Source: an uncultured Dokdonia sp. (lineage in GTDB: Bacteria > Bacteroidota > Bacteroidia > Flavobacteriales > Flavobacteriaceae). From it: 49,744 nt of DNA. The notes beneath the pieces were generated by a model. The model made no database searches and was not told where the DNA came from. It saw only the letters and a program-made list of their open reading frames with translations. Each line of letters opens with the position of its first letter. The stretch's first letter is position 1. This document shows, piece after piece, positions 971-49,441 of the stretch. The stretch covers positions 1 to 49,744 of the forward strand of contig NZ_CALEMI010000169.1 in assembly GCF_937910895.1 (NCBI RefSeq), written 5' to 3'. Made by a program: the position numbers and the translations under genes.

Positions 971-3900
971 AACATGCTAGATTTTCAGTATCATCAAGAA
1001 AATCAAAAACACCATCACCATTTGTATCTGTAGGTTCAGTATATCCTGGCCCTCCATTTGCCGTGTCCGATATTACGAGTCCATTCTCGTCCACTACAGC
1101 AGGGGAGGTATTTCCAAGTTCTCCATCTTCGTCCGCTTTCGCGAAAGCGTCAATAAAACCAGCTTCTACAGTATCATTACAACCGTCATTATCTGAATCT
1201 GAATCTAAATAATCTGGAGTTCCGTCTCCATCTGTGTCTGGTGCGTCTATAAATACGTGACTAGGGTCATTATAAAGATTAATTCTACACTCATCAAATT
1301 GAATAGAATAAAAACGATCTACTTGTTGGTTTGTCCTTTTATTTGCTCCAATAGTAAAATTAAATGTATTGGTCTCTGTTTTTTGAAAGAATACTCTCCA
1401 AGGGTTTCCTGTATCAATAGGTTCTATAGGAGCACTACCGCTACCATCTGCTATGAACTGTACAATTCCTCCTGCTAATTGTTGGGCTATTACTCGTGTG
1501 GGATTCCCTATAGAATATCCACTAATATTTTGAACTCTATAAAACTCTCTGATTGAGCTTGTTTCTGGACCGCCATTAGAACCACTGTCAATGTCTTGTA
1601 TAAAACCACCGATTCTTTCTACTGTCGCGTTCGTTGTTGTATTATCTTCAACAAGTCTAAAGTTAAAGACCGCTGTTCTATCTCCAGTAGTATTTGCATT
1701 GTATCTTATAATAGGCTGGAAAGCTACTGTACCTCCTGATGTTTGATCGATATTTGTGACACGTGCTCCTGCACTAATTGATGTAAGTGTTACTAAGGCA
1801 TCTATAGTGTTTCCATTTATATCAACACCTACATTTTCAAAACGCCATATAGAACCTGCAAATCCTGCACCAGTAGGTGAAGATCCAGCTTGATAGGTTC
1901 CACCATTGAAGTCATAGTTAATACCTGTACATCCTATCCCTGTTGGGCCTACCCCTTCATAAAAGCCATATCCTTCTGTAACATCAGTGATCCCGTCATT
2001 ATCATCATCTCGATCTTCATTATTATTTACATCATCACCATCACTATCTTCATTAGAAGTACGATCTCTAAAATCTACATTACCGCCATCATTGAGGTCT
2101 CCTTGTGGAATACCTCCAACGATAGGACCGTCTGTATCTGGAAGATCTGCTGTATCATTGATTGTTCCATTAGGATCTGCATAATTAGGTGTTCCATCTA
2201 GTTCTGGTGTATCCGTTGTGTCTACAGCGTCATCGAGTCCGTCTCCATCTGTATCAGTTCCTGCTAAGATTAATCCAGCTTCTGCGGTATCGTTACCTCC
2301 TTGATTATCTGAATCTGTATCTAAATAATCTGGTTGATCTACGGTATCTGTGTTTACTGGAAAAATACCAAGCTCTTCGCCTTGCGCATTTACATACGTC
2401 ACTGGTAATCCAGTAGCGGTCACATTAGGAATACCATCCCCTGCAACGCTTCCGTCTGATCCGTCATCTAGAGGAGGTGTATATCCAAGAGTGGATTGTC
2501 CTTCATTATTATCTGGAATACCGTCGTTATCTGAATCTAGATCTAAATGGTTGGGAACCCCGTCATTATCTGCATCCATTGAAGCACAAATCCCATCTAC
2601 ACTAAGCGTACAGAAATCAGCATCTTGATAGTTAGGAATACCATCTAAATCATTATCTGCAGAAGGGTCTAAATTTGCACATATTCCATTTGCATTAAGC
2701 GTACAGAAATCAGGATCTCTATAATCTGGAACTCCGTCTGCATCTGTATCTGCCGTTAATTGTGCTTGTGTTAATGATTCTCTGATATCAAGAATTCCAT
2801 CATTATCATCATCAATATCGAATTCGTCTTCTACACCATCACCATCTGTATCAATATTATCTGGAGTCACTGTAATGACTACCGTAGCTGTCTCTGTTGA
2901 TGTACTACCGTCTGCATTGGTGACTGTTACTGTATAATCAAACGTATCTGTTCCATTAAAGTTTGGATCTGGTGTGTAGGTAACGGTTCCGTCAGGATTG
3001 ATAGTGACCGTTCCATTGGCTGGATCGGTTACATCGGTTACTTCATTATTTGCTCCTTCAAACGTATCATTGTTTAAAACATCTACATTGACTGGTATGT
3101 CTTCTGGAGTCGTCTCTGCATCATCAACCACATCTGCAATCGGTGCGACTGTTACTACTACCGTCGCTGTATCTGTACTGGTTGATCCGTCTGGACTGGT
3201 CACTACTACTGTATAGTCGAAACTATCCGTTCCGTTAAAGTCTGAATCTGGCGTGTAGGTCACTGTACCATCTACCTCGATGGTAACAGTTCCATTGGCT
3301 GGATCTGTTACCTCTGTTACTTCAGCAGTTGCTCCTGTAGTGTTATCGTTATCTAAAACATCGATATTTACTGGAGTATCTTCATCACCACTTGCAACAT
3401 CATCATTAATTATTGGTGTAATTAAAAAACCACTAGATTCTAATGTGATACATGCATTATTATCATGAGTGATAACCACAAAAAATTCTGTTCCTCCAAG
3501 ACCCGAAACATCACCTATAGCAAGTGTTGCAGTAGTAAAGTCTGTATAATTTGTATCTGTACCATCAATGAGTGTTCCGCCCGCATTGGGGTCTCCAATA
3601 TACCATTGGTAATTCACTCCACCATTTGCATTTCCAGGTGTCCCATAATCAGGCGTGCCTGTGGTATATCCTGTTGCGTCATCTCCTCTAGCGACAACAC
3701 TAAATGTAGTCCCGCCTGTCATTACTGATTGATCAGAAACCTCTGTTGTCACTACTACCTGCGTAGCTTGAGTGACATCGGCTGTTGTAGTTTGCTGTTG
3801 AGAAGCACCACCTGCATCTTCAGGAATTCCATTTGCGTCTACCTGTCCTTCGTCATTATCTGCAAGGTTGTTTGAACTTGTAAGATCTGATTGCTGAAAT

Positions 3901-5777
3901 GTTCCATTCGCTTCTACAGCATCAGGACATCCATCATTATCACTATCTGTGTCTAAATAATCTGGATCATCAGCACCGTCAGTGTTTAATAGCAAACAAT
4001 ACTTTAGATCAAATAAGCCTAAGGTCACATTTCCAGCATTATCAGAACCATCTGGCTCATCTTTTGCTGCTCTTATGGTTACGAATGTTACAGGTCCAGA
4101 AGTTATTACTCTCACCGCATTTGCAGGTGCATTACCTGTTCCATCTGTACTTACTACAGAATTTCCAAGAATAAAAGAGTCGGCATCATCTAGTGCATCA
4201 ATGTTTTCTATTCGTAATGCTCCATCTGAGGCAAAGTCTGAACGGTCTCCATTATCTAAACCTCCCCAAGAAAACTCAAGATTATAGACAGGTTCACTAA
4301 ATGTTAATGTATATAGCGCTGTTCTTCCAGTATCAAAATCTGAATCATCCAATCGTGATTGTAGCACTGTTCCTCCTGAAGCATCCTCAATTCCTCCATC
4401 CGTAGGCCAATTAGGTCCTACGCCTGCATTGACATCTGCATCTATTGTATTTTCTAACTCCCCAGTAAATGTTGCTGTTACCGCTGGAAGCGGCCCTGCT
4501 CCGTCAGGATCAAAGGTATACAAATTACCTTGTGATATTATCTCAGTATTATTTATAGTAAATGTCTGACCCAGAGCCACAGGATCTGGAGAGCAGTTTA
4601 GTTCGTCTGTATCTAAAATACCATCGTTATCATCATCTTGGTCTACATAGTCAAACACACCATCTCCGTCAGAATCTTCAACCACCGTAATTTCTAAAAG
4701 AGCTGTATTTGAAGAGGTGCCTAAATCGTCTTCAACCCTGAAATTTATATTTGCAGAACCCGTATAACCATTTGCTGGCGTATATGTTACGTTTCCAGAA
4801 GCATCTACTACATACGTTCCAATTCCAGGAACAACCAGTGGACTTCCTACTGTTCCTATATTTGTAGGATCATTTGGGTCTATTAAGGTAACACTTGATA
4901 CATCTAAATTTCCATCAGGATCTGAAGATCCTGTAAGCACATTAATAGGTGTGTTCCCTGTTGAGTTTATTTCAACAATATTTCCAAAATTATCTACAAC
5001 TACAGGTGGAGCATTAGTATTAACCACTGTTGGATTCCCGAAAACAACCTCTCCTAAAAAACCGATTGAAATTTGTCTTGTAGTAACTGGATCATTATTT
5101 ACTCTCCCTAATGTAAAGTTTATACTACTTGTATTTACATAATTTAATTTTACAACAGATCTTGTATTTGCAGCGTCTACTCCTGCATCTGTAATATTTG
5201 CACTATCAAATCTGATTGTCTGGGCTCCTGGAGTTCCAGCTGTTATAATGGTACCTGGAGGCGTCGCTCCTTCCAACTCATAACTAGCAGGTACTGTAAC
5301 GATTGCAAACTCTCCTGCATCCATATCAATAATCTCCATACTGTATGAATCTAAAGGAATAGGAATCGCATCTGCAAGATTAGGTTCCGAAGAATCTGCT
5401 ACAATAAATTGCATATTCCAAGTTACTGCTTCATCTGCTGTATCGTAAGTTATAGAAGGTTCAAATCTATTTACTATAGCTGTTGTTCCATCTACTGTAT
5501 TTACTGTAGGTGTTCCTGTAAAACTAACTAAAGTCACTAATGCGTCTACGTCAAGAATTCCTCCATTTACCGTTAAAGAAACATCAGAAAATCTATACAC
5601 AGATCCTGGCTGATTAAGTGTTCCCGAAACTAATACTTGGTTATTAGGGAAAATCGGAGTCTCTTGTGCAAAAAGGCTATTATTTGATGCAAACAGTATA
5701 GCAATAAAAAGCGCACTATACTTAAATAGTGTGTGTATGCTTTTTAAGATGATTGAGAATCGAGTATTGATTTTCAT
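1..5777 (-). CDS. Giant secreted adhesin-like protein with cadherin-like and TSP3-type repeats (3' end outside window)
   Basis: The minus strand is open from an ATG at 5777 to the window edge, giving 1925 codons with no stop; the frame read at both ends agrees. Residues 1-37 are a signal peptide ending SLFA, with Q38 probably first in the mature protein. Reading on: a beta-rich N-terminal region, an Ig/cadherin-like domain near residues 300-365, a calcium-binding TSP3-type stretch near 367-391 (DSDGDG and DDDNDG motifs), a jellyroll-like region, two cadherin-like (tandem-95 type) units near 790-970, a long TSP3 block to about 1280, a second jellyroll-like region, more TSP3 repeats, and at least three more cadherin-like units from about 1600 on. 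Such proteins in Bacteroidota are usually exported by the type IX system and bind surfaces or polysaccharide, but the C-terminal sorting domain would lie outside this window. Residues 1544-1548 (AFAKA) come from a dispersed palindrome. Function is inferred from architecture only. Confidence 0.9.
1134..1149. repeat. Dispersed palindrome, copy 1 (in giant CDS)
   Basis: CGCTTTCGCGAAAGCG, perfect over 16 bases. On the minus strand it is read as AFAKA inside a TSP3 repeat. Confidence 0.9.
2863..3420 (-). repeat. Second pair of cadherin-like units in the giant protein
   Basis: Two adjacent units of the same type as in 1-970 carry the shared core [11 protein letters not shown]. They are separated from the main array by about 1.9 kb encoding TSP3 and jellyroll-like regions. 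Confidence 0.8.
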
Positions 5778-5794
5778 ACGCTTCTTCTTTTTAC

Positions 5795-5811
5795 GCTTGA
5801 GTACATCAAGC
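5795..5811 (-). promoter_or_regulatory. Inverted repeat in the leader of the giant gene
   Basis: GCTTGA-GTACA-TCAAGC is a perfect 6-base inverted repeat with a 5-base centre, 18 bases upstream of the ATG. It could be an operator or a small leader hairpin; nothing identifies a ligand. Confidence 0.4.
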
Positions 5812-6527
5812 ATATATTATTTTGATGGTGAGTTGGTCTATTTATATATGTACGAAAAAAAACTTCTAATGGTTTTTTAAGTACATTGATTTTGATTTTT
5901 TGAACAAAAATAGTGGTATCGCACTGATTTATAGTGACAAAGAGGTTGCAAAAAGAGTAGAAAGGCATTATGCACCAACATAAAAAATGCATCATCATAT
6001 ATGATGTGCATTTTAAGTCTTCAACAATAGTTAACATTAAGACAAAGGTTGTCTTATTTGTTGCGGAGATTGTAGGTTTGATCATTGGTATATTAAAAAA
6101 ATTATGATTCTTTTATACAGTTTAGGGACTAAACAAAAGAATAAAATAATTTTACAGCTAAGATAAAACTTAGCGATTTAACTATTCTTTAAGATATAAC
6201 ATTTTCTTTAAAAATCGATGAAACGTATTAAATCATCGACAAGATACACAATTTTATTCACATAATTATTAACAATAACATTTTTTTTACGGTATTTCCG
6301 TAGCGGCTATGGATTTAGCTTTAAATATCAGGGAATTAGTACAAAAATGAAAAATACTAGTAAAAAGAGAAAAGCATATGTAAAATTTACTAGTAAAAAG
6401 TAGTTGAATACTTTTTAGAAAGAGATCTAGAAATTTGACAAAATTTAAAATTAGGCTGTTTCACGCATTGTTAAAATCAAAATAATAAATGGTAAATAAA
6501 ATTCTTAAAACGTGCTTAAAACGTTTT
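5812..6527. other. AT-rich non-coding stretch upstream of the giant gene
   Basis: I see no convincing gene here. A 103-codon frame on the minus strand has no recognisable family and overlaps the promoter region of the giant gene. A direct repeat TACTAGTAAAAAG occurs at 6355 and about 6389, the second within the palindrome TTACTAGTAA. Promoter signals for the giant gene probably lie here but are not clear. Confidence 0.5.
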
Positions 6528-6602: not shown

Positions 6603-6620
6603 ACGCTTTCGCGAAAGCGT
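6603..6620. repeat. Dispersed palindrome, copy 2 (intergenic)
   Basis: ACGCTTTCGCGAAAGCGT, perfect over 18 bases, begins 9 bases after the rseP stop and lies before the separate terminator. Confidence 0.9.
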
Positions 6621-9134: not shown

Positions 9135-11234
9135 ATGGCAAAGCAACTCAATGTAGCACTTATAGGAAATCCTAATACAGGAAAGACTTCGGTATTTAAT
9201 CATCTTACTGGGCTTAACCAACAAGTAGGGAATTATCCAGGGATTACCGTTGAAAAAAAAGAAGGAATCTGTAAATTAGACAGAGGTGTGAAAGCACATA
9301 TCTTAGATCTTCCAGGTACGTATAGTCTCAACGCTTCTTCTCTAGATGAAAATGTTGTTATTGAATTATTACTCAATAAAAACGATAAAGATTTCCCAGA
9401 TGTTGCTGTTGTGATCTCTGATGTAGAGAATTTAAAACGAAACTTACTTCTTTTTACACAAATAAAAGATTTGGGTATTCCTACGATTCTGGCTATCAAT
9501 ATGGCAGATCGGATGAAACGTAAAGCTATTAGTTTAGATATTCCAAAAATGGAAGCTCTCCTGAACACAAAAATTGCTTTAATAAGTAGTCGTAAAAAAC
9601 AAGGAATTGATTATCTCAAACAACTCATTACCGATCATAAAAATATTTCTACAAAGCCTTGTGTAAATGCGTCTGTGATTGCACCAGAATATTTTGACAG
9701 ATTACGCAAAGCATTTCCTAATCAGGACTTATACAAGTTATGGTTAGTGATTACTCAAGATGTTAATTTTGGAAAAGTAGAACGTAAAGAGATGAATACC
9801 ATTGCTTCCTTTAAAACAGAATCTGTGAGTAATCTTAAACGCTTACAGCAAAAGGAAACGATTATACGCTATAAATTTATTAATGAGGTTCTAAAAGAAA
9901 CGCTTACGATAGATATTGCAAACGCTAAAGATTTGCGCACACGCCTAGATCGCACACTTACTCATAAAGTCTGGGGATATGTGATTTTCTTTGCTGTACT
10001 GATGTTTATTTTTCAGGTGATTTATAATTGGTCACAATACCCAATGGACTTTATAGATGCTAGTTTTGCGTCGTTAAGTGAATGGGTAAAAAATACACTT
10101 CCTGCCGGAGCACTTACTAACCTACTCGCCGAAGGAATTATAGCAGGACTAGGCGGGATTGCTATTTTTATACCACAAATCGCCTTCTTGTTTTTATTTA
10201 TTTCCATTCTGGAAGAAAGTGGTTATATGAGTCGGGTGGTCTTTTTGATGGACAGGATTATGCGTCGTTTCGGACTTAGCGGAAAAAGTGTAGTCCCTTT
10301 GGTATCTGGAACTGCCTGTGCGATTCCCGCCATCATGGCGACACGTAATATAGAGAGTTGGAAGGAACGACTTATTACCATACTTGTTACTCCATTTACC
10401 ACTTGCTCTGCACGATTGCCTGTGTATCTTATTATTATTTCGCTGGTTATTCCTGATGAGAAATTTTTATTTTTTAATTTACAAGGACTCACCCTTATGC
10501 TTCTCTATCTTATAGGATTTGGAACTGCCATAGGTTCAGCTTGGATCCTTAATAAGGTATTAAAAATAAAAAGCAAGTCCTTTTTTGTGATAGAAATGCC
10601 CAACTACAAGCTTCCGTTATTAAAAAATGTTGCAATTAATGTTTTAGAAAAAACAAAGTCATTTGTCGTTGATGCTGGTAAAATCATACTCGCTATTTCC
10701 ATTGTGTTGTGGGTACTTGCCTCTTATGGTCCTACCAAAGAATTTTCAAATGCAGAAGCTATTGTAACGGCGCGTATGGATGAGGGCGCTTTCGCGAAAG
10801 CGGACTTAGAAAAACAAATTGCTTCCTTCCGATTAGAAAAAAGTTATATAGGACATCTTGGAAAGTTTATAGAACCCGCCGTAGAACCCTTAGGATATGA
10901 CTGGAAAATAGGGATTGCATTGATTACCTCTTTTGCTGCTAGAGAGGTTTTTGTGGGGACACTTGCTACTATATACAGTGTAGGAAATGATGAGGAAGAA
11001 ACTATTAAAATACGCATGGCAAACGAGACAAATGAGGTTACAGGGAAGCCTTTATTTAATTTTGCAAGCGGTATTTCGCTCTTATTATTCTATGCCTTTG
11101 CCATGCAGTGTATGAGCACCTTGGCTATTGTAAAACGAGAGACCAATACTTGGAAGTGGCCTATACTGCAATTGGGAGTTATGAGTGGTTTTGCGTATCT
11201 TGTTGCTTTAATAGCGTATCAAATCCTTAAGTAA
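9135..11234 (+). CDS. feoB: FeoB, GTP-driven ferrous iron transporter
   Basis: 699 residues. The N-terminal G domain has G1 GNPNTGKT at 11-18 and G3 DLPG at 58-61. A helical linker follows, then, from about residue 275, the polytopic membrane part with two Gate motifs; GTACAIPAIMATR lies in the first. It imports Fe(II) across the inner membrane. It follows feoA by 4 bases and is followed by a Cys-rich peptide, the usual feo arrangement. Residues 552-556 (AFAKA) lie in a loop between membrane segments and are encoded by a perfect copy of the dispersed palindrome. Confidence 0.95.
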   Translation: MAKQLNVALIGNPNTGKTSVFNHLTGLNQQVGNYPGITVEKKEGICKLDRGVKAHILDLPGTYSLNASSLDENVVIELLLNKNDKDFPDVAVVISDVENLKRNLLLFTQIKDLGIPTILAINMADRMKRKAISLDIPKMEALLNTKIALISSRKKQGIDYLKQLITDHKNISTKPCVNASVIAPEYFDRLRKAFPNQDLYKLWLVITQDVNFGKVERKEMNTIASFKTESVSNLKRLQQKETIIRYKFINEVLKETLTIDIANAKDLRTRLDRTLTHKVWGYVIFFAVLMFIFQVIYNWSQYPMDFIDASFASLSEWVKNTLPAGALTNLLAEGIIAGLGGIAIFIPQIAFLFLFISILEESGYMSRVVFLMDRIMRRFGLSGKSVVPLVSGTACAIPAIMATRNIESWKERLITILVTPFTTCSARLPVYLIIISLVIPDEKFLFFNLQGLTLMLLYLIGFGTAIGSAWILNKVLKIKSKSFFVIEMPNYKLPLLKNVAINVLEKTKSFVVDAGKIILAISIVLWVLASYGPTKEFSNAEAIVTARMDEGAFAKADLEKQIASFRLEKSYIGHLGKFIEPAVEPLGYDWKIGIALITSFAAREVFVGTLATIYSVGNDEEETIKIRMANETNEVTGKPLFNFASGISLLLFYAFAMQCMSTLAIVKRETNTWKWPILQLGVMSGFAYLVALIAYQILK
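10787..10802. repeat. Dispersed palindrome, copy 3 (in feoB)
   Basis: CGCTTTCGCGAAAGCG, perfect over 16 bases, read as AFAKA in feoB residues 552-556. Confidence 0.9.
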
Positions 11235-11667: not shown

Positions 11668-12072
11668 CTACCCTCTTATTTCTAAATAATATACGCGATC
11701 GGATATTGCCATACTTGTGTTAGGGTATGGAGAAAGTCGAACTGCTTTTATAACAGAAGTTTTTGAGGTGTATAAAACAACATCTTTTCCTAAAGCGTCA
11801 AAAATAAATTCTTTCTCTATAGGTGCTTTCCCTTTTTCTTTGATACGTACTTTGATTTTTGCTTGCCCAGCCCATACACAGTCTACATCTTTAGGACATC
11901 TAGAATCTTCAAGTACTTCAAGAAAGGTAACTTCGACTGTATTTATTTTTTGATGCATTCCTATTCCTAATTTAAATACTAAAGCATCCGCTGAAGTTGT
12001 AGGGGAAGTATTTTGTGCTTTCGCGAAAGCGCAAAAACAAATAATAGCTAAAAAAATATGCAAAGATTTCAT
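11668..12072 (-). CDS. Small secreted protein with a DSRCP...CVWAG motif
   Basis: 134 residues with a signal peptide (about 1-19), then a beta-rich domain carrying EDSRCPKDVDCVWAGQAKI. This two-Cys motif marks a conserved family of unknown function found in Bacteroidota and elsewhere. The predicted signal peptidase site (AKA before Q20) is built from the dispersed palindrome, which encodes AFAKA here. The gene converges with the feo operon and lies 48 bases upstream of the 3' end of the metal ABC operon in map order, so it may be a separate unit. Its function is unknown to me. Confidence 0.8.
   Translation of the reverse strand: MKSLHIFLAIICFCAFAKAQNTSPTTSADALVFKLGIGMHQKINTVEVTFLEVLEDSRCPKDVDCVWAGQAKIKVRIKEKGKAPIEKEFIFDALGKDVVLYTSKTSVIKAVRLSPYPNTSMAISDRVYYLEIRG
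12016..12031. repeat. Dispersed palindrome, copy 4 (in secreted-protein gene)
   Basis: TGCTTTCGCGAAAGCG; the core GCTTTCGCGAAAGC is perfect over 14 bases. On the minus strand it encodes AFAKA at the signal-peptide cleavage site. Confidence 0.9.
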
Positions 12073-15595: not shown

Positions 15596-16513
15596 TTATT
15601 TAAGCGAGTTTACGATCGTATTTACATTATACCTAAACATACCTATATACGTTCCCTCTTCAGTTCCTGCATCTCCTAAAGCATCACTATATAACGAGCC
15701 ACCTATCACCACTTCGTGATCTTTTGCTTTTACAGCGGCTTGTAATGCTTCTATGGTTCGTCTTGGTACGGAGCTTTCTACAAAAATGGCTTTTACATCA
15801 TTATCAATAATAAATTGAGAGAGTCGCTGTACATCTTGTACTCCTGCTTCTGTTGCCGTTGATAATCCTTGTAAACCAACTACGTTAAAATCATAGCTTT
15901 TTCCAAAGTAATTAAACGCATCATGCGCCGTTACCAAAATTCGTTTTTCCTTAGGTAGGGTTTCAATGATGGCTTTTACTTCCGTATCCAGTGACGTGAG
16001 TTGGGCAAGATAGGCGTTACCATTTGCTTTAAATTGTTCTGCTTGTTGGGGTAGCTTTCGCGAAAGCGTACTCACAACAACTCCTACAAACTCTTTAAAA
16101 TACTGGATATTGAACCATACATGCGGATCGTAATTTGATGCAAAATAATCAGAACCAATGAGTGTTGATTTGTCCAATTGTTCTCCTAAAGCTACTTGAG
16201 TTTTTGTAGCAGATCCCATCTTTTCAAATACCTCGACGAGCTTTCCTTCCAGATGTAACCCGTTATAAAAAATAATATCTGCATTAGAAAGTTTTGTGAC
16301 ATCACCTGCACTCGCTTTGTATAGATGCGGGTCTACCCCTGCCCCCATAAGCCCTTGTATATCTATCAAATCACCTCCTACGTTTTTGACAAGATCAGTG
16401 ATCATAGAAGTGGTCGTGACGACTTGTAATCTTTTATTTTTGGAAGCTGTTTCGTTTTTACAACTTATCACGCTTAAAGCGAAAAGAAATATGAGAATCT
16501 GTTTTATGTTCAT
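15596..16513 (-). CDS. Metal ABC transporter substrate-binding lipoprotein (ZnuA/TroA/MntA family)
   Basis: 305 residues. A lipoprotein signal ends VISC with C18 as the lipid-bearing residue. By position H63, H131, H197 and D277 are the likely metal ligands. A histidine in the third place (TAHDAFNYF) resembles zinc-type and TroA proteins rather than the Glu-containing manganese type, so zinc and manganese both remain possible. It captures metal in the periplasm for the permease/ATPase genes downstream, 7 bases away. Residues around 148-153 (STLSRK) carry a dispersed palindrome copy, and the signal peptide contains a relative of the second palindrome family. Confidence 0.92.
16053..16068. repeat. 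Dispersed palindrome, copy 5 (in metal-binding lipoprotein gene)
   Basis: AGCTTTCGCGAAAGCG; the core is perfect over 14 bases, with one outer mismatch. On the minus strand it is read as TLSRK. Confidence 0.9.
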
Positions 16514-18051: not shown

Positions 18052-18531
18052 TTACGGAACTAATTCCTTTGCTTTTTCATACACCCAATCTCCTTCCCAG
18101 CCTCTATAAAGTAAATAATCGGCTAGTTTTTTTCTTTTCTTGTATTTGTCTTTTTCTTTGGAAAGTTGCTGTATACGCTTTCGCGAAAGCGTATTAAACG
18201 TGCTTATATACTCTTCTTCAGAGATTTCTAACAGCGCTGTTTTAATATTATAAGCAGAAATCTGTCGCTGTTTTAATTCTCTTACAATGCGTTGTTTTCC
18301 CCAAGATTTATGATTGAACTTTCCACGCACATAGGCTTTTGCAAAGCGTTCTTCGTTTAAAAAATTATGTTCGATCAGATGTCCTATCACGATATCTATC
18401 GCATCGGGTATCATACGCATTTCTAAGAGCTTTTTGCGTACTTCTTGATGACAACGGTCTTGGTAGACACAATAACGCTCTAGGGCACGTTTTGCCTCTT
18501 CTATGGTGTATGTTTTTATGGGTTTTAACAC
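18052..18531 (-). CDS. recX: RecX-family regulatory protein
   Basis: 159 residues with the three-helix tandem repeats of RecX: EEAKRALERYCVYQDRCHQEV, then IEHNFLNEERFAKAYVRGKFNHKSWGKQRI (split here for length, residues about 53-82), then DYLLYRGWEGDWVYE near the end. RecX binds RecA filaments and modulates recombination. Residues 114-119 (TLSRKR) are encoded by the longest perfect copy of the dispersed palindrome, 22 bases. The gene lies between rng and the metal-uptake operon, all on the same strand, and is separated from rng by a terminator. Confidence 0.9.
   Translation of the reverse strand: MLKPIKTYTIEEAKRALERYCVYQDRCHQEVRKKLLEMRMIPDAIDIVIGHLIEHNFLNEERFAKAYVRGKFNHKSWGKQRIVRELKQRQISAYNIKTALLEISEEEYISTFNTLSRKRIQQLSKEKDKYKKRKKLADYLLYRGWEGDWVYEKAKELVP
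18173..18194. repeat. Dispersed palindrome, copy 6 (in recX), longest copy
   Basis: TACGCTTTCGCGAAAGCGTA with one further matching pair at each end, a 22-base perfect palindrome read as TLSRKR. Confidence 0.92.
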
Positions 18532-21059: not shown

Positions 21060-22100
21060 TTGAATATATCTAATAAACTCATATCGTGGTATCTAGAAAA
21101 CAAGCGTGAAATGCCTTGGAGAAAAACCACAGATCCTTATCGTATTTGGCTATCAGAGATCATTCTTCAACAAACTAGAGTAGCGCAAGGTTTGCCCTAT
21201 TATTTAAAGTTTACAGAGGCATTTCCCACCGTAAAAGATCTAGCAAATGCTTCTGAAGAAGAAGTTTTGAAATTATGGCAAGGATTAGGCTATTATTCTC
21301 GTGGCAGAAATTTACACACAGCTGCAAAGTACATTGTAGAAGATCTTAATGGAGTTTTCCCAAACACGTATAAAGAGTTATTAAAATTAAAAGGTGTTGG
21401 TGATTATACAGCTAGTGCCATAGCCAGTATCAGTTTTCAGGAGCCTACTGCTGTGGTAGATGGTAATGTGTACAGAGTGTTGTCTCGCCTTTTTGGTATT
21501 GACACTCCTATTAATAGCACACAAGGCATTAAAGAGTTTAAGGAACTTGCTCAAGAACTTATTGACAAAGACCAACCAGCAAACTTTAATCAAGCTATTA
21601 TGGAATTTGGAGCCATACAATGTAAGCCTCAAAATCCGTATTGTTTACATTGTGTTTTTAATGACTCTTGTGTGGCTTTACAAAAAAATAAAATTGACAC
21701 ACTTCCTGTAAAACTCAAAAAAACAAAAGTTAAAAATCGGTATTTACATTATTTGGTGTTCAGATCTACAGATCATAAAACAATCATACAGCGTCGTACA
21801 GGAAAAGGAATTTGGGAAGGGCTGTATCAATTTCCATTAATTGAAGGGGAGTTTGACGGTGTACGCTTTCGCGAAAGCGAACCCTTTCTAAAAGAAACAG
21901 CTTCTTACACGATAAAAAATGCGTCTCAATATAATGAAACGCCTATTGTGCATAAATTATCTCATCAACATTTGCATACTATATTTTGGATTATCGATGT
22001 AGAACAACTTCAAGAAGATGCGATTGAAATTACAACCCTGAGATCCTATCCAGTTCCTGTGCTTATTTCTAATTTTATAGAAGAAATAGGTTTAATCTAG
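21060..22100 (+). CDS. mutY: MutY, A/G-specific adenine DNA glycosylase
   Basis: 346 residues from a TTG start at 21060; the next Met (residue 18) would cut into the conserved N-terminal fold. E33 (WLSEIILQQT) and D134 (VDGNVYRV) are the expected catalytic residues, with the helix-hairpin-helix at LKGVGDYTASA. C188, C195, C198 and C204 form the 4Fe-4S ligand set (spacing C-x6-C-x2-C-x5-C). The C-terminal Nudix-like domain recognises 8-oxoG. It removes A opposite 8-oxoG. Residues 269-273 (RFRES) come from the dispersed palindrome and lie in the C-terminal domain. In flavobacteria mutY usually sits directly before ssb-gldE-gldD, as nearly here. Confidence 0.95.
   Translation: MNISNKLISWYLENKREMPWRKTTDPYRIWLSEIILQQTRVAQGLPYYLKFTEAFPTVKDLANASEEEVLKLWQGLGYYSRGRNLHTAAKYIVEDLNGVFPNTYKELLKLKGVGDYTASAIASISFQEPTAVVDGNVYRVLSRLFGIDTPINSTQGIKEFKELAQELIDKDQPANFNQAIMEFGAIQCKPQNPYCLHCVFNDSCVALQKNKIDTLPVKLKKTKVKNRYLHYLVFRSTDHKTIIQRRTGKGIWEGLYQFPLIEGEFDGVRFRESEPFLKETASYTIKNASQYNETPIVHKLSHQHLHTIFWIIDVEQLQEDAIEITTLRSYPVPVLISNFIEEIGLI
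21864..21879. repeat. Dispersed palindrome, copy 7 (in mutY)
   Basis: CGCTTTCGCGAAAGCG, perfect over 16 bases, read as RFRES (mutY residues 269-273). Confidence 0.9.
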
Positions 22101-26120: not shown

Positions 26121-26140
26121 TACGCTTTCGCGAAAGCATA
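26121..26140. repeat. Dispersed palindrome, copy 8 (intergenic)
   Basis: TACGCTTTCGCGAAAGCATA; one outer mismatch. It begins immediately after the gldD TAG and could act as a transcript 3' hairpin, though no T-run follows. Confidence 0.9.
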
Positions 26141-28745: not shown

Positions 28746-30359
28746 CTATCCTAGTGGTGGTTGTCCGTTCATAATTTCTTCACTAGCATACGATTCAAAT
28801 TTTTTAAAGTTTTCTTTGAATGATTTTGCTAGTTTATGTGCTGTTGTGTAGTATCCTTCGTCATTTTTCCAAGTAGCGCGAGGAGATAACACTTCTGTAG
28901 GTACGCCTGGGCATGTACGCGGTTGTGCGACTCCAAATACAGAATGGATATGATAATTCTCTGGAGTCACTTCAGACGGTAACTCTCCGTTCATCGCGGC
29001 AGAGATCATCGCTCTTGTGTATTTGAGCTTCATACGAGATCCAACGCCGTAAGGACCTCCGGTCCAACCTGTATTTACCAACCATACATTCACTCCTGCT
29101 TCTTGCATTTTCTTGCTTAACATATCTGCGTATTTTGTAGGATGTAAAGGCATAAAAGGAGCTCCAAAACAAGCAGAAAAAGAAGGTTGTGGTTCTGTAA
29201 CCCCTGCTTCAGTTCCAGCAACTTTGGCAGTATACCCACTTATAAAGTGATAGGCTGCTTGTCCAGGTGTTAATTTTGAGATGGGAGGCAGTACGCCAAA
29301 AGCATCTGCCGTTAGGAAGAATATATTCTTAGGATTCTTTGCCAATGATGGCACTTTGATATTATTGATGTGATCAATAGGATAACTTACACGCGTATTT
29401 TGAGTAATGGATGTATTTGCAAAATCAACGTTCCCATCCTCATCCATAATGACGTTTTCCAAAATAGCTCCTGGCTTTATCGCATTATAAATATCAGGTT
29501 CATTTTCGGCAGAAAGATTAATCACTTTTGCATAACATCCTCCTTCAAAATTGAAGATCGTATTTTCTGCAGTCCAACCATGCTCGTCATCTCCTATCAA
29601 TTTACGATTAGGATCTGCAGAGAGTGTTGTTTTTCCAGTTCCAGAAAGCCCAAAAAAGATAGCTGTTTCTCCGTTTTCACCTACATTGGCCGAGCAATGC
29701 ATCGGTAAGGTATTTTTTTCTACAGGAAGGATAAAGTTTAATGCAGAAAAAATCCCTTTTTTGATTTCTCCTGTATATCCTGTCCCACCGATTATAATTG
29801 TTTTTTCTGTAAAACTTAATATAGCAAAATTAGATTGACGTGTCCCATCTACTTCTGGATCTGCAAGAAATCCAGGAGCATTGAGAATCGTCCATTCTGG
29901 CGTAAAGTTTTCAAGCTCTTTCTCTGTAGGTCTCAAAAACATATTATAGGCAAACATATTTGACCAAGGATACTCGTTAATCACGCGTATATTCAATCTA
30001 TATTTATCATCTGCACAGGCATAACTATCTCTTACATAAAGTTCTTTGTCAGAAAGATAGTCTGTCACTTTTGTTTTTAATTTCGCGAAAGCGTCAGCCT
30101 CAAAAGGAATATTAATAGATCCCCACCATACTAAATCTTTGGTCTTATCATCTTTTACAATAAAGCGATCCAGAGGTGAACGCCCAGTAAATTTACCAGT
30201 ATTGACCGCAAGTGCTCCGCTAGAAGCTGTTTTTCCCATAGTATTCTTTACAGAAATATCATGCAATTCTTGAGGTTCTAGTTGGTAATGAGCGATTGCA
30301 TTGTCAATTCCGTAGGGTTTTAACGAAATCGTTTTCGTAACTGAAGTGTAAGAAGCCAT
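28746..30359 (-). CDS. pckA: Phosphoenolpyruvate carboxykinase (ATP)
   Basis: 537 residues from the ATG at 30359 (MASYTSVTKTISLKPYGID); an upstream ATG at 30395 lies within the promoter and is rejected. GGTGYTGEIKKGIFS is the PEPCK signature and GLSGTGKT at 237-244 the kinase P-loop, followed by the metal-binding IGDDEHGW. It converts oxaloacetate and ATP to PEP and CO2, the first step of gluconeogenesis. Residues 90-94 (AFAKL) overlap a partial copy of the dispersed palindrome. It has its own promoter and a hairpin after the stop. Confidence 0.96.
   Translation of the reverse strand: MASYTSVTKTISLKPYGIDNAIAHYQLEPQELHDISVKNTMGKTASSGALAVNTGKFTGRSPLDRFIVKDDKTKDLVWWGSINIPFEADAFAKLKTKVTDYLSDKELYVRDSYACADDKYRLNIRVINEYPWSNMFAYNMFLRPTEKELENFTPEWTILNAPGFLADPEVDGTRQSNFAILSFTEKTIIIGGTGYTGEIKKGIFSALNFILPVEKNTLPMHCSANVGENGETAIFFGLSGTGKTTLSADPNRKLIGDDEHGWTAENTIFNFEGGCYAKVINLSAENEPDIYNAIKPGAILENVIMDEDGNVDFANTSITQNTRVSYPIDHINNIKVPSLAKNPKNIFFLTADAFGVLPPISKLTPGQAAYHFISGYTAKVAGTEAGVTEPQPSFSACFGAPFMPLHPTKYADMLSKKMQEAGVNVWLVNTGWTGGPYGVGSRMKLKYTRAMISAAMNGELPSEVTPENYHIHSVFGVAQPRTCPGVPTEVLSPRATWKNDEGYYTTAHKLAKSFKENFKKFESYASEEIMNGQPPLG
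30081..30093. repeat. Dispersed palindrome, copy 9 (partial, in pckA)
   Basis: TTTCGCGAAAGCG; the right half is complete and the left arm lacks the outer GC. Read as AFAK on the minus strand. Because the natural PckA sequence has a helix here, chance cannot be fully excluded. Confidence 0.7.
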
Positions 30360-34265: not shown

Positions 34266-36359
34266 ATGATTGCAGAAAAAGACACCTTACATACGCTTCT
34301 AAAAACCCATTTTGGGTATGATCACTTTCGTGAAAACCAATTGGAGATTATTCAAGATATCATTTCAGGAAAAGATACCTTAGTCATCATGCCAACTGGA
34401 GGCGGAAAATCCATGTGTTTTCAGCTTCCTGCATTGGCGTTGCCAGGTACCGCTCTCGTGATATCACCGCTTATTGCATTAATGAAAGATCAAGTAGATG
34501 CATTGAAAGCAAACGGTATCAAAGCGGCCTATTATAATAGTACACAATCGCAAGAAGAAATAGAAAAAGTAATTCAGGACCTACAAAAAGACGAACTGGA
34601 TCTTATTTATGTAGCACCAGAAAGCTTGTCATTACTTGACAATGTTTTACAAGAAGCACATATCAGCTTAATTGCTATAGATGAGGCACATTGTATTTCA
34701 TCTTGGGGACATGATTTTAGACCTGCCTACACCCAACTAGGCTATCTTAAAAAACGATATCCTTCAACGCCTTTGGTTGCACTAACCGCAACAGCAGACA
34801 CCTCTACACAAGATGATATTGCTGAGCAACTTTCTATACCAAACGCAAAACGGTATGTTGCCTCTTTTGATAGACCTAACCTATTTCTGGATGTACGACC
34901 TGGTCAAAACAGAATAAAACAAATTCTTTCTTTTTTGGATAGACGTCCTTTTGAGAGTGGTATTGTTTATTGTCTGAGCAGAAAAAGCACAGAGCAACTT
35001 GCTCAAAAATTACGAGATGCAAATCATCCTGCTACTGCATATCATGCAGGAATTAATTCCGAAGAACGCGCACAAATACAGGAAGACTTCATCAATGACA
35101 AAACACCTATCATAGTCGCGACAATAGCCTTTGGGATGGGTATTGACAAGAGCAATGTACGCTGGGTCATCCATTATAATATGCCTAAAAACATAGAAGG
35201 CTATTATCAAGAAATTGGTCGCGCAGGCAGAGACGGACTCCCTTCACACACGCTCCTATTTTACAGTTATGCAGATACCATACAGTTGCGTAAGTTTATA
35301 GAAAACAGCGCAAATATCGAATACCAAACGGCAAAATTAGACCGGATGCAACAATATGCAGAAGCTTTAAGTTGTCGGCGAAAAGTATTGTTGAATTACT
35401 TTGGAGAATTTCTCTTAGAAGACTGTGGGAATTGTGACATCTGTAAAAACACCCCTGAATATTTTGATGGTACTGTCATCGCACAAAAAGTACTTTCAGG
35501 GATTGCTCGATTAAAAGAGCAAGAACCTTTAGGAATGGTCATAGATGTCCTTCGAGGTTCTCAGAATGCCGCCGTATATGACAAAGGGTATCAACATATC
35601 AAAACCTTCGGCGCTGCTAAAGATATTGCCTGGAAAGATTTACAACAGTATATCATTCAAATAATTAATCAGGGGTTGTTGGAAATACGCTTTCGCGAAA
35701 GCGGAAGACTCCTTCTTACCCCACTGGCAAATGATGTCTTATTTAACGGATACAACGTACAATTGGCAAATCTCGTCCAGCCCATTGTTGAAATTCCCAA
35801 AGAACGTAAACCTAAAAAACCAAAAGGCACCTTATTTGAAAAACTTCGTGAGTTGCGTAATGAACTTGCCCGTGACGAAAACGTGCCTGCTTACATTATT
35901 TTTAGTGACGCCAGTTTGAAAGATATGGAAGATCAAGAACCCACGACAGAAGCTGAGTTTCTTGCGATAAGTGGTGTAGGACAAGCAAAACTTGAAAAAT
36001 ATGCTTCTGATTTTCTAAACGTAATCAAGGCTCATATCGCCAAACCAAAAAAACAAAAAGTTGGCAAAACTCACGAAGAAACACGCTCCTACATTGAACA
36101 AGGACTCTCTATAGAAGAGATTGCCGAAGCTCGAAATCTTACCCTAAGCACTATATATAATCACATATTAAAATTACGTGAGGACGGTATGGAGATAGAT
36201 TTTGACCCATTTATCACGACACAGGAAATCGATCAAATCAATAAGGCACAAAACGAAGTAGAAGATGCTACGAGTTTAAAATCATTTTTTACCTACTTTG
36301 AAGAGCAAATGCCCTATTGGAAAATCAAAATGGGGTTATACCTATTAAAAGACAAATAA
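34266..36359 (+). CDS. recQ: ATP-dependent DNA helicase RecQ
   Basis: 697 residues from the ATG at 34266 (a TTG 12 bases upstream is possible). Walker A TGGGKS at 44-49, DEAH at 139-142, zinc-binding CGNCDIC around 390-396, RQC winged helix, HRDC ([20 protein letters not shown]), and a C-terminal helix-turn-helix ([20 protein letters not shown]). It unwinds DNA 3' to 5' in recombination and repair. R475-S479 (RFRES), in the RQC domain, are encoded by the dispersed palindrome. From memory of E. coli RecQ the length of this loop looks unchanged, so the site seems substituted rather than inserted. Confidence 0.95.
35688..35703. repeat. Dispersed palindrome, copy 10 (in recQ)
   Basis: CGCTTTCGCGAAAGCG, perfect over 16 bases, read as RFRES (recQ residues 475-479). 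Confidence 0.9.
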
Positions 36360-36395: not shown

Positions 36396-36411
36396 CGCTT
36401 TCGCGAAAGCG
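36396..36411. repeat. Dispersed palindrome, copy 11 (intergenic)
   Basis: CGCTTTCGCGAAAGCG, perfect over 16 bases, 37 bases after the recQ stop. Confidence 0.9.
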
Positions 36412-45115: not shown

Positions 45116-45823
45116 CTAGGGGGCTTTTTTTAGTATGGAGAGTGCCTCCTCCTTATACTTCCCCCCAATAGGAATTTCTATGTTTCCGATTTCAATATCT
45201 TGTTGCGTAAACGCCGTGATATGATCACGGTTGACGATGTAGGACCGGTGTACGCGGATAAAAGAAGTATCGGGAAGTTGGTCTATAAAATGACTAATCC
45301 GTTCTTTAATGACAAGCGTTTCTGTGGTCGTATGAATCTTCAAATAGTCTTTGATACTTTCTATATACCTAACTTCTTCTAAGATGACTTTGACATGCTT
45401 TTTATTCACGTGAACAAAGATATGTGTGGGTACGGTGGTAACTTCTTGACTTAGAGTTTCCACAACTTTTGGAGTTACCACTTGCAATCGACTCACAGCT
45501 TTGAAAAAACGCTCAAACGTAATGGGTTTTAAGAGATAATCTTGGGCTTGCAATTCGTAACTCTCGACCGCATACTCGCGATAGGCGGTGGTAAAAATGA
45601 CCTTAGGTGGATGCTGTAATGATTTTAAAAAATCAATCCCAGTGAGCTTTGGCATTTGGATATCTAGAAATAGCACATCTACTTGATTTTTAGATAAAAA
45701 ATCTGCTGCCAATAGCGCGTTTTTAAACGATGCTCGATGCTCCAAAAAAGGAACATCAGCAATATGCTGCTCAAGTAAAGAGCGTGCTAAAGGTTCGTCA
45801 TCTACTACTATACAAGTCATCAT
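45116..45823 (-). CDS. LytTR-family response regulator
   Basis: 235 residues from the ATG at 45823, whose ATGA overlaps the kinase stop. Receiver domain: acidic pair D8-D9, phosphoacceptor D54 (LFLDIQMP), and a conserved K in DYLLKPI. The C-terminal LytTR DNA-binding domain (about 125-230) has HVNKKHVKVILEEVRYIES and FIRVHRSYIVNRDHI. It acts with the sensor kinase upstream. The 3' end runs into a repeat-like GC-rich sequence (CCCCTCTCGGGGGTTAGGGA) common in Bacteroidota. Confidence 0.93.
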   Translation of the reverse strand: MMTCIVVDDEPLARSLLEQHIADVPFLEHRASFKNALLAADFLSKNQVDVLFLDIQMPKLTGIDFLKSLQHPPKVIFTTAYREYAVESYELQAQDYLLKPITFERFFKAVSRLQVVTPKVVETLSQEVTTVPTHIFVHVNKKHVKVILEEVRYIESIKDYLKIHTTTETLVIKERISHFIDQLPDTSFIRVHRSYIVNRDHITAFTQQDIEIGNIEIPIGGKYKEEALSILKKAP

Positions 45824-46887
45824 CGAGTGCGTTCTGTATGGATCCGTAAAGCTACACAATACCATCCATTTTCATCACTCACTTGGTATGAATAATCGGT
45901 ATATAACAATTCCAACTGCTTCTTTATATTGGAAATTCCTATGCCTTTGGTATAGGCTGTATTATCTGTTTGTGATTCAATCGTCTTGGTATTTTTTACG
46001 GTAAAATAGAGCTGTGAACCTTCTTGTTTTAAATGGATATGAATCTTTGGAATCTCGGTACTGCCGCTCGCTCCGTGTTTAAATGCATTCTCTAGAATAG
46101 ATAACAAGATGAGGGGTCCTATTTGTGTTTCGAAGTTTCTGGGGTACGCTTTCGCGAAAGCAATCTCAATATCATCGCCATACCGTAAACGTTCCAATAC
46201 AATATAATTTTCCAACAAGGTGACTTCCTTTTTCAAAGGCACAAGTTTATCATTGCATTGGTATAACATGTAATCCAACATCGCCGAAAGTGTCGCTACC
46301 GTCTCTGGCGCTTTATCTGATTTCTGAAGCGTGAGCGCATATAAATTATTGAGTGTATTAAATAAAAAATGTGGATGGATCTGTGCTTTTAACGCGCCCA
46401 ACTCGGCTTTATTCTTGTCGCGTTCTAGTTGAAGTAATGCTTTTTCGTTTTTGTTTTTCTGGGTAATCATACGATCTATTGTCATCGCAAGGGTTGCCAT
46501 CAATAACGGAATCAAATATCCATCCAATAGAAATTCCCAATCACTAAAAATCTGTACGAATGATTCTTGCTCAAACGGACGTTCTCTAAAAATAGGTTCA
46601 TACACATACACCGTAAATACCCGATCTAACGCACTTGCTACGTAAAATAACACCACTGTAAAAACCCCAAATAATAGATATTTCTTATTTCTATAGTAAT
46701 ATTGCAATAATACATTATTGAAAATATAGGCAACGATGAGATATGCTGGAAGGTGTTTTAAGTTTTGCGCAAAAATGGACCAAAAGGATTGTGAATTTCC
46801 TTCTTGAAAAAACTGAATCAATGCAAAACTGAAGAGTAAGACTCCCCAGAATAGGATGTGGTTTTTATGTGATTTTTTTTTGTTCAA
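45820..46887 (-). CDS. LytS/YehU-family sensor histidine kinase
   Basis: 355 residues: four membrane helices (about 10-140), then a His-kinase domain of the LytS type with LKAQIHPHFLFNTLNNL (H173 is the phosphorylation site) and an ATPase region with ILENAFKHGAS and GIGISNIKKQLELLY. No extracellular sensor domain is present, so it probably senses within the membrane. It is coupled to the LytTR regulator by a 4-base overlap. Residues 243-247 (AFAKA) are from the dispersed palindrome. Confidence 0.93.
   Translation of the reverse strand: MNKKKSHKNHILFWGVLLFSFALIQFFQEGNSQSFWSIFAQNLKHLPAYLIVAYIFNNVLLQYYYRNKKYLLFGVFTVVLFYVASALDRVFTVYVYEPIFRERPFEQESFVQIFSDWEFLLDGYLIPLLMATLAMTIDRMITQKNKNEKALLQLERDKNKAELGALKAQIHPHFLFNTLNNLYALTLQKSDKAPETVATLSAMLDYMLYQCNDKLVPLKKEVTLLENYIVLERLRYGDDIEIAFAKAYPRNFETQIGPLILLSILENAFKHGASGSTEIPKIHIHLKQEGSQLYFTVKNTKTIESQTDNTAYTKGIGISNIKKQLELLYTDYSYQVSDENGWYCVALRIHTERTR
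46148..46161. repeat. Dispersed palindrome, copy 12 (in histidine kinase gene)
   Basis: GCTTTCGCGAAAGC, 14-base core, read as AFAKA; left flank TAC is also conserved. Confidence 0.9.
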
Positions 46888-48130: not shown

Positions 48131-49441
48131 ATGAAAAAATTTAAACTCAATAAAATCGGTCGCCGTTTCTGGAGAACTGTCTGTGTTTTATTTGGACTTT
48201 TAGTCATTTGGAATATCTACTATTTTTCTACGTTTACACGCTTTCGCGAAAGCGCACCCATCACCACCACCGTAAGTCATCCTGATTACAAAAACCCAAT
48301 AGCAGAAGCCACTACCGTACTTGCCGCTATAGGGGAAGACAAAAAACTACCCTCGTTTTCTGTAGCGGTTGGACATCACGGAAAGGTTATTTGGTCGGCT
48401 GCGGTTGGGTATCAAGATATAGATGCAGGCATTGCCGCGACTCCCAAAACACAATACCGTATTGGAAGCACCTCAAAAGCTGTCACAACCACAGGAATTG
48501 CTCGTGCGGTGGATGCTCATAGAATACAGTTAGAGGTAATCATCGGAGATACGATTGTGAATTGGACAAAAAAGAAATGGGATTTTAGTATGCAACAACT
48601 CTTGAGTCATACGGCTGGTGTTGGTAATTATGAAGATTTTGGGATAGCTTCCGCGAAATATACCATGTGTAATTGTCATGAGTTTACAACTGCCTCAGAA
48701 GGATTAACCGTGTTTGACCCGTATGATTTGATTTTTGAACCTGGGACTTCATTTGCATATTCGACATTTGATATTAATCTTGCGAGTGTGGTTTTGGAAC
48801 AGGCTGTTGGTACTCCTTTTCTGGAGTATATGGAAGCAAACATATTTCAGCCTTTAGGAATGAAGGACACATACGGCGATCACAACCGCCCAAAAACAGA
48901 AGACTTTGCTACCTTTTACGAAACTAGAAATGAGTATTACCGAGAGTTTCGAAGTTTTGAGCAAGTGTACGATATCAACTTAAGCTATAAATGGGCTGGC
49001 GGTGGGTTTATCTCCACTCCTACAGATCTTGTCAAGATGGGAAATGCCTATCTTAAAGATGATTCTTTTATCAGTCACGACACCAAAAGAAAATTCTGGA
49101 CACCTATGAAATTAGACAACGGCGAGGTCAACGAACAACTCTATGCTTTAGGATGGCGCTCATATTTGGACTATACAAACCCCAATCTCCTAGACGGCAA
49201 AACCCCTGTATGGATGGTACATCATGGAGGCGTGAGTAAAGGATCTCAAAATTTCTTAATCCTTTTTCCGAATTATGACCTTGTGATCGATGCCTCTATC
49301 AACACGAATGTAGCTGACTTTGGAATCTTCTCTGATGAAGTGTATAAAATTGCAAATGTCTTCTTGAAAACTATAGAAAAGAAGGAGAAGGTACTTTACA
49401 GAGAAATCAAACTTAGTATTGAAGAAGCATCTGTTAAGTAA
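48131..49441 (+). CDS. Membrane-anchored serine hydrolase (beta-lactamase/class C PBP family)
   Basis: 436 residues from the ATG at 48131; a longer open frame begins at 47999 but its start has no membrane-protein character. One membrane anchor (about 15-33), then the serine hydrolase domain: S113-T-S-K116 is the SxxK nucleophile motif; AYSTFDINLASVVLEQ is in the place of the YxN motif with T for N; HHGGVSKGS gives the HxG motif. It hydrolyses or transfers an acyl/peptide group in the periplasm; the substrate is unknown. R37-S41 (RFRES), just after the anchor, come from the dispersed palindrome. Confidence 0.9.
   Translation: MKKFKLNKIGRRFWRTVCVLFGLLVIWNIYYFSTFTRFRESAPITTTVSHPDYKNPIAEATTVLAAIGEDKKLPSFSVAVGHHGKVIWSAAVGYQDIDAGIAATPKTQYRIGSTSKAVTTTGIARAVDAHRIQLEVIIGDTIVNWTKKKWDFSMQQLLSHTAGVGNYEDFGIASAKYTMCNCHEFTTASEGLTVFDPYDLIFEPGTSFAYSTFDINLASVVLEQAVGTPFLEYMEANIFQPLGMKDTYGDHNRPKTEDFATFYETRNEYYREFRSFEQVYDINLSYKWAGGGFISTPTDLVKMGNAYLKDDSFISHDTKRKFWTPMKLDNGEVNEQLYALGWRSYLDYTNPNLLDGKTPVWMVHHGGVSKGSQNFLILFPNYDLVIDASINTNVADFGIFSDEVYKIANVFLKTIEKKEKVLYREIKLSIEEASVK
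48239..48254. repeat. Dispersed palindrome, copy 13 (in serine hydrolase gene)
   Basis: CGCTTTCGCGAAAGCG, perfect over 16 bases, read as RFRES. Confidence 0.9.

What the first reader, a model, noticed from the sequence alone, without database searches (positions are those of the whole stretch)
1134..48254. Dispersed 14-22 base palindrome (core GCTTTCGCGAAAGC), 13 copies in 50 kb
Seen directly at 1134, 6603, 10787, 12016, 16053, 18173, 21864, 26121, 30081 (partial), 35688, 36396, 46148 and 48239. A given 14-mer is expected about 0.0002 times in a window this size even at equal base use, so this is strong enrichment. Copies are spread evenly over unrelated genes on both strands. I know of no name for this element. 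Candidate roles are a binding site for a nucleoid or chromosome-segregation protein, a DNA-uptake-like signal, or a HIP1-style highly iterated palindrome. A palindromic mobile element is the main alternative.
Basis: partly seen in the sequence, partly recalled or inferred. Interest (0 to 1): 0.88.

Follow-up and report, generated by a model that had tools for sequence, protein, structure and literature searches.

The report
Evenly spaced palindrome marking Dokdonia genomes
A marine bacterium and its relatives carry the same palindromic DNA word hundreds of times, spaced more evenly than chance, probably as a self-recognition mark for DNA uptake or as a chromosome-wide binding site.

Summary
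In detail: 12 exact GCTTTCGCGAAAGC copies plus one half-decayed copy in the window, 878 in the 4.81-Mb genome, 979 with up to one mismatch. The host is Dokdonia (Flavobacteriaceae). All 17 other Dokdonia genomes searched carry 369-905 copies; of 397 family genomes, 6 carry hundreds, from Dokdonia and two more genera. Copies lie in and between genes and repel each other: 3 of 215 intervals are under 1 kb, 44 expected. Sites largely persist at orthologous positions. It is not a mobile element or a terminator, and two methylase families tested do not regularly accompany it. Best reading: a palindromic DNA-uptake-type signal kept by recombination drive (0.4). Rivals: a chromosome-organising site (0.28) or an orientation-free Chi (0.12). 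The protein that reads it is not identified, and 7 of 10 carriers tested lack a type-IV-pilus motor, which counts against a classical uptake signal. My literature searches found no description.

The parts
1135..1148 (.). exact copy, inside a giant minus-strand ORF (3..5813, at least 1937 aa, open at the window edge)
6605..6618 (.). exact copy, 10 bp past the stop of rseP (6629-7939, -)
10788..10801 (.). exact copy inside feoB (9135-11234, +)
12017..12030 (.). exact copy inside a 134-aa ORF without Pfam match (11668-12072, -)
16054..16067 (.). exact copy inside a ZnuA-like metal-binding protein gene (15596-16513, -)
18177..18190 (.). exact copy inside recX (18052-18531, -); exact at the orthologous place in 4 other Dokdonia loci that could be aligned, absent in 3 Leeuwenhoekiella loci
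21865..21878 (.). exact copy in mutY (21060-22100, +), read as RFRES; 19 of the 20 mutY loci found in 22 carrier genomes have one exact copy at this place
26124..26137 (.). exact copy, 3 bp past the gldD stop (25554-26120, +)
30079..30092 (.). two-mismatch copy with one intact half, inside the PEP carboxykinase ORF (28746-30395, -)
35689..35702 (.). exact copy inside recQ (34254-36359, +)
36397..36410 (.). exact copy, 37 bp past the recQ stop
46148..46161 (.). exact copy inside a histidine-kinase-domain ORF (45820-46887, -)
48240..48253 (.). exact copy inside an ORF of the serine beta-lactamase family PF00144 (47999-49441, +)

Best explanation
The palindrome is the core of a dyad-symmetric element of about 50 bp that marks a lineage's own DNA, most likely a DNA-uptake-type signal. 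A surface or periplasmic receptor would prefer fragments carrying the element. Homologous recombination of the preferred DNA would then restore and spread exact copies by molecular drive. A second copy within one fragment length adds nothing, so copies come to lie about 4 kb apart with short distances excluded. Copies arise and decay by point mutation. SHOWN: copy number, extended symmetric motif, excluded short distances, positional conservation, high exact-to-near-match ratio, restriction to three genera in the sample. INFERRED: an uptake receptor, the drive, and loss of the system in Leeuwenhoekiella.
For: Spacing: 3 of 215 intervals under 1 kb against 44 expected, CV 0.65. In a single-contig genome, 20 stretches of 20 kb have variance/mean 0.29 (P 0.001). 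PMC1939737 (passages) says Karlin et al. saw significant even spacing of the uptake sequences it treats. Sites lie in genes and are enriched between them: 30 of 86 outside ORFs against 8.6% expected. Of 54 non-exact aligned cells between species, 29 are one to three substitutions; PMC7811141 section 8 says uptake sequences evolve by point mutation. Arms add about 5.6 bits a side (my sum over) to a core of at most 28 bits, against 12.8-13.4 bits needed to mark that many places; such excess suits a drive better than a regulator. Copy number rises by only 46 per extra Mb among the 13 genomes at least 90% complete (slope P 0.26), as if mostly core DNA carries it. ComEC is in 18 of 18 genomes and DprA in 12 of 12, in the host as two partial matches. 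Riemerella columbina prefers its own DNA in transformation (PMC7965970 section 16); the abstract calls its relative R. anatipestifer a member of Flavobacteriaceae.
Against: No uptake sequence known to me is a perfect palindrome; PMC1939737 states that those it treats are not, and also that they are less evenly spaced than chromosome-compacting sequences should be, so very even spacing speaks as much for an organising site. The pilus/secretion ATPase family PF00437 is over cut-off in only 3 of 10 carriers tested, the host among the three. ComEC and DprA are also in the two Leeuwenhoekiella genomes that lack the mark, so they do not discriminate. Flavobacterium johnsoniae was not competent in the same study (abstract), and a paper search on Dokdonia with natural competence found nothing. 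Protein identity around in-gene sites is not lower than the gene mean (0.804 against 0.801, 47 cases), whereas uptake sequences are said to avoid constrained coding parts. Three site-free contigs of the host gave no phage or plasmid hallmark among ten proteins. In two more distant Dokdonia genomes position is less conserved: of 11 in-gene sites of G012 placed in an orthologue, 5 are at the same place, 3 elsewhere in the gene, 3 absent.
Confidence: 0.4

Rival explanations
1. Chromosome-organising site: a dimeric cytoplasmic protein binds the dyad about every 4 kb and condenses, segregates or supercoils the chromosome, or docks a topoisomerase. Selection ignores or removes redundant close copies.
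For: Perfect dyad symmetry with long symmetric arms; similar density in 20 stretches around one chromosome, with no visible trend; 33 of 36 aligned sites exact between G008 and G016 at 82% flank identity; PMC1939737 regards very even spacing as the mark of compaction sequences.
Against: Copy number hardly follows genome size (13 genomes, not significant). The mark is absent from 317 of 397 family genomes and at hundreds of copies in only 6. The information content is far above what is needed. No binding protein was identified or searched for.
Confidence: 0.28
2. Orientation-free Chi-like site: an AddAB/RecBCD-type enzyme reads the word on either strand and switches to recombination there. The G-poor arm lies 3' of the core on each strand, the side where context is recalled to matter for E. 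coli Chi.
For: Strand-specific 3' arm with a 3-nt rhythm on both strands; density near one per 4 kb, close to that recalled for Chi in E. coli.
Against: Known Chi sites (recalled) are 5-8 nt and directional; this core is 14 nt plus arms. AddAB/RecBCD was not searched for. The density and context comparisons are recalled, not tested.
Confidence: 0.12
3. HIP1-style palindrome tied to a DNA methyltransferase acting on the core.
For: Highly iterated palindrome in genes and between them, restricted to few genera.
Against: PF00145 found in 7 of 16 carriers tested and PF01555 over cut-off in 2 of 16. TCGCGA is not among the 14 most enriched 6-mers once the full word is masked. Other methylase families were not tested.
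Confidence: 0.06
4. Palindromic mobile element (REP/MITE-like).
For: Many exact copies, also on mobile-looking metal-resistance islands of other genera; 21 of 54 non-exact aligned cells are gaps.
Against: Six gap cases inspected: three hold the intact site (an artefact of my masking), three differ by untidy indels larger or smaller than the element. No common flank beyond the arms; copies in frame in genes; short-range exclusion.
Confidence: 0.02

Closest known systems
DNA uptake sequences (Haemophilus USS, Neisseria DUS)
   Same: Many near-exact copies, even spacing, in genes and enriched between genes, extended flanks (recalled for USS), evolution by point mutation, presence in a few related genera.
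   Different: Perfect palindrome with two symmetric arms; host not known to be competent; type-IV-pilus motor missing in 7 of 10 carriers tested.
HIP1 (GCGATCGC) of cyanobacteria
   Same: Highly iterated perfect palindrome, clade-restricted.
   Different: Longer, with arms and excluded short distances; the two methylase families tested are not shared by carriers.
parS / Noc-binding / MatP sites
   Same: Dyad sites of 13-20 bp for chromosome proteins (recalled); the TTTC..GAAA halves recall parS.
   Different: Half-site spacing two bp shorter than parS (recalled sequence); hundreds of copies in all parts of the chromosome sampled.
Chi
   Same: Density near one per 4-5 kb; 3' context (both recalled for E. 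coli).
   Different: Not directional, much longer.

Membership tests
DNA uptake sequence | Strong genomic over-representation of an exact word | tested here: met
   878 exact, 979 with up to 1 mismatch
DNA uptake sequence | More even spacing than random | tested here: met
   on CV alone 4 of 8 samples have P below 0.01 and 4 have 0.05-0.24
DNA uptake sequence | Evolves by point mutation, not insertion | tested here: met
   29 of 54 non-exact cells are 1-3 substitutions, 21 gaps, 4 other; six gaps inspected, none a clean insertion
DNA uptake sequence | Under-represented in newly acquired DNA | tested here: inconclusive
   Count barely rises with genome size in 13 genomes, slope P 0.26; 8 sites in 39 kb accessory against 171 in 681 kb conserved DNA; 3 site-free contigs without mobile hallmarks in ten proteins
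DNA uptake sequence | Avoids constrained coding positions | tested here: not met
   Local identity 0.804, gene 0.801, 47 cases, P 0.26; yet intergenic enrichment is present
DNA uptake sequence | Type-IV-pilus-type uptake machine in carriers | tested here: not met
   PF00437 over cut-off in 3 of 10 carriers
DNA uptake sequence | Promotes uptake in a transformation assay | not testable with these tools
   experiment
HIP1 | Highly iterated perfect palindrome | tested here: met
HIP1 | Accompanied by a conserved methyltransferase on the core | tested here: inconclusive
   two families tested, neither shared by the carriers; others not tested
Palindromic mobile element | Insertion with clean empty sites | tested here: not met
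   six gap cases inspected, none clean; three of them in fact hold the intact site
Intrinsic terminator | Sits at gene ends, convergent pairs favoured | tested here: not met
   56 of 86 inside ORFs; 3 of 30 outside sites convergent
parS/Noc-type site | Bound by a ParB-family protein | not tested
   no search made
Chi | Attenuates a RecBCD/AddAB enzyme | not testable with these tools
   experiment; presence of the enzyme not searched

The most novel reading that the evidence does not exclude
A new kind of genomic ruler: a perfectly palindromic dyad of about 50 bp, read by a dedicated symmetric protein, held at roughly 3-5 kb intervals around the whole chromosome for folding, supercoiling or bidirectional recombination control, old enough to be shared by separate Flavobacteriaceae genera and lost in others such as Leeuwenhoekiella.
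Probability: 0.4. Interest if true: 0.9.

Novelty: new variant of a known kind. Interest (0 to 1): 0.74.

Why it matters
I know of no uptake sequence or evenly spaced chromosome mark in Bacteroidota (recalled; my paper searches are in the full report). This element gives a precise, high-copy bait for finding the protein behind either. If it is an uptake signal, it extends sequence-specific transformation to a phylum where the uptake machine is little known. If it is an architectural or Chi-like site, it makes the question of what sets a kilobase-scale ruler on a bacterial chromosome directly testable. The exact word on metal-resistance islands in other genera may also serve as a tag of where those islands resided.

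Tried and rejected
Mobile element, terminator and HIP1-methylase readings: see rivals and membership rows. A gradient along the chromosome: none seen in 20 stretches of one genome. Long site-free gaps as acquired DNA: mostly not. Of 18 gaps over 8 kb in four 200-kb regions, 3 are more than a quarter accessory, and the two largest coincide with giant genes of 5560 and 4344 aa. Phages and plasmids: 11 phage records and 3 plasmid records with weak chance-like matches. In IMG/VR, 3 stretches have the 18-mer. These say nothing firm, because I do not know how many Dokdonia viruses the collections hold. Raised relic density in Leeuwenhoekiella: not shown (7.1 per 100 kb with up to 3 mismatches against 5.4 in 70 other loci; one of its four loci overlaps another). 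Only mutY and the genome counts (9 and 6 exact copies) hint at relics. Other genus-specific words in non-carriers: no equally strong word in eight groups of 22-172 kb.

The site-conservation counts understate conservation. My masking of the core with N made BLAST open gaps; in 3 of 6 such cases inspected the site is intact. The size-count regression used the host and 12 of the 17 other Dokdonia genomes; the five under 90% complete were dropped.
Full report
OBSERVATION. The 14-mer occurs 12 times exactly in the window and once with two mismatches, with no one-mismatch copy; shuffles give 0.09. The genome holding the window (4,809,286 bases, 169 contigs) has 878 exact copies and 0 of the reversed control, and 979 with up to one mismatch, so exact copies outnumber one-mismatch forms about nine to one. 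The ratio varies: 86 to 19 in 380 kb of G012, 180 to 15 in 600 kb of G016 and 14 to 5 in five named Dokdonia loci. In three samples where this word has 52-86 copies, no other 14-nt palindrome exceeds 3.

HOST AND DISTRIBUTION. All 17 other genomes of the genus carry 369-905 exact copies. That call also covered 18 genomes of other genera in the family (2 with a match: 578 and 6 copies) and 23 of the same order (0). In 397 family genomes, 80 have any copy. Six have hundreds: Dokdonia (878, 857), genus g11 (578, 664, 609) and genus g210 (408). The other 74 have 1-19. In 149 genomes of the class, 10 besides the host have 1-4. Genera g11 and g210 are unnamed in the collection. A named MAG (L048, 21.5 kb) with 1 exact and 3 one-mismatch copies is probably another carrier. 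A MutY tree puts g210 near Leeuwenhoekiella and g11 far from Dokdonia (one gene, midpoint root, some long branches), so carriers do not form one clade on it. Leeuwenhoekiella (g164, identified by MutY) has 9 and 6 copies.

ANATOMY. Pooling the samples from Dokdonia, g11 and g210, 117 intergenic and, separately, 214 in-gene sites (near-duplicates removed) show the same outward flank on both sides: G at +1 (0.90 and 0.85), T at +2, A at +3, then about 15 positions where G is 0.01-0.16 (background 0.15 and 0.18) and T is low at +4, +7 and +10. The A-or-C excess at +4, +7, +10, +13 recurs in g11 alone (62 sites: 0.82 against 0.64 and 0.72 in the other phases), in two Dokdonia samples, and in g210 on only 8 sites. 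The element is therefore about 50 bp with dyad symmetry, and the same reader is likely at work in Dokdonia and g11. A minority class keeps one intact half and loses the outer GC of the other, as at window 30079.

PLACEMENT. In 380 kb of G012 (MutY identical to D. sinensis), 86 sites split into 56 inside ORFs and 30 outside, where 8.6% outside is expected; 3 of the 30 lie between convergent genes. Seven other samples lean the same way, strongly in five and slightly in the window (3 against 2.0) and g210 (3 against 1.2). The gene calls are my own ORF picks, not a trained gene finder. Inside the genes of G012 all three frames are used (34 AFAK, 14 LSRK, 8 FRES). In the window, sites fall in recX, mutY and recQ among others. 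In G000, G011 and G016 a site lies 74 bases before the ComEC domain match (listed places); the other genomes could not be checked from the listings.

SPACING. In the 380-kb stretch CV is 0.66 against 0.98 for random placement, and 0 of 85 intervals are below 500 bp (9 expected). Over a non-overlapping set of 215 intervals 3 are below 1 kb, 44 expected. By sample, the CV test gave P below 0.01 in 4 of 8 and P 0.05-0.24 in 4 of 8 (G009, G016, the window, g210); intervals under 1 kb number 0-2 in each. Twenty stretches spread over a single-contig 3.29-Mb genome give 6.4 sites per 20 kb, variance/mean 0.29, range 3-9, with no visible trend (P 0.001).

CONSERVATION. In four syntenic 200-kb regions, 27-44 of 31-46 aligned sites are exact in both genomes of a pair at 77-93% flank identity, a lower bound. 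Across larger distances it is looser: of 56 in-gene sites of G012, 17 had a match in the other Dokdonia DNA held and 11 could be placed: 5 at the same position, 3 elsewhere in the gene, 3 without a site. For mutY, 22 carrier genomes were searched; in two incomplete ones (G005, G007) only a distant paralogue was found. The other 20 each carry one exact site; 19 sit at the same place, while one (G010) has it about 240 bp further on, just past the gene's end. L. palythoae has a one-mismatch copy there and two other Leeuwenhoekiella have 4 and 3 mismatches. I read these as relics; protein constraint or convergence cannot be excluded. Of 28 in-gene sites of g11, 9 had a match and 6 could be placed in a Dokdonia orthologue: 2 at the same base to within 1 bp (one of them at 32% protein identity), 2 elsewhere in the gene, 2 without a site.

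MECHANISM. Three functions fit a repelled, conserved, high-information mark: uptake signal, chromosome-organising site, bidirectional Chi. I favour the uptake type because even spacing, intergenic excess, substitution turnover and restriction to a few genera occur together in uptake sequences, and because the information far exceeds what marking needs. The palindrome, the missing pilus motor in 7 of 10 carriers and the lack of avoidance of conserved protein parts speak against it, so the margin is modest. ComEC is present in all 18 genomes tested and DprA in all 12, carriers or not.

LITERATURE. Searches for the core (none; 10 papers, by the listing none on this element), Dokdonia with palindrome (5 papers, each naming Dokdonia once, not opened), flavobacteria with uptake sequence and natural transformation (2 papers), uptake signal with Bacteroidetes and palindrome (55 papers, 15 listed), Dokdonia with natural competence (none) and highly iterated palindromes with flavobacteria (none) gave no description. 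PMC7965970 (section 16 and passages), PMC7811141 (section 8 and passages) and PMC1939737 (passages) were opened. PMC4390886 (HIP1) was searched for five terms and has none of Bacteroidetes, Flavobacteri or TCGCGA. The library lacks most subscription journals, so prior description is possible.

Noticed in passing
L339 (G118), L340-L341 (G127), L342 (G376), L343 (G254), L038 (G029): Related islands (74-95% identical pieces) in five non-carrier genera hold 3-5 exact copies in 20-40 kb. The G118 stretch has heavy-metal P-type ATPase, RND efflux, outer-membrane efflux and multicopper oxidase genes; the G127 stretch a CusB-like one. A 933-bp site pair recurs in G118, G127, G141 and G254. They look like elements that came from a carrier lineage.
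   Followed up: partly
L203, L220, L225 (IMGVR_UViG_3300039191_000362) and L233 (IMGVR_UViG_2617271332_000001): Two viral contigs of 38-40 kb hold at least three exact 14-mers each; possibly viruses or proviruses of a carrier.
   Followed up: no
L138 / L141 (G230:C1:1346198-1347230): mutY of G230 is found as two overlapping pieces in different frames, with one exact palindrome in the gene; a real frameshift or a sequencing error.
   Followed up: no
L312:2502-19181 and L335:2646-15677: Giant genes (5560 and 4344 aa) fill the longest site-free gaps of the G009 and G016 regions.
   Followed up: no
window 3-5813 (-): Open-ended giant ORF of at least 1937 aa at the window edge.
   Followed up: no
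Algibacter, Hyunsoonleella and Tamlana loci among L049-L111: Palindrome ATAAACGTTTAT occurs 4-5 times per group where 0.03-0.06 is expected; may be one orthologous place repeated or a second clade-specific word.
   Followed up: no
G012 380-kb stretch: Repeated word AGTTGGAAGTTG and relatives enriched after masking the palindrome, perhaps a short tandem array.
   Followed up: no
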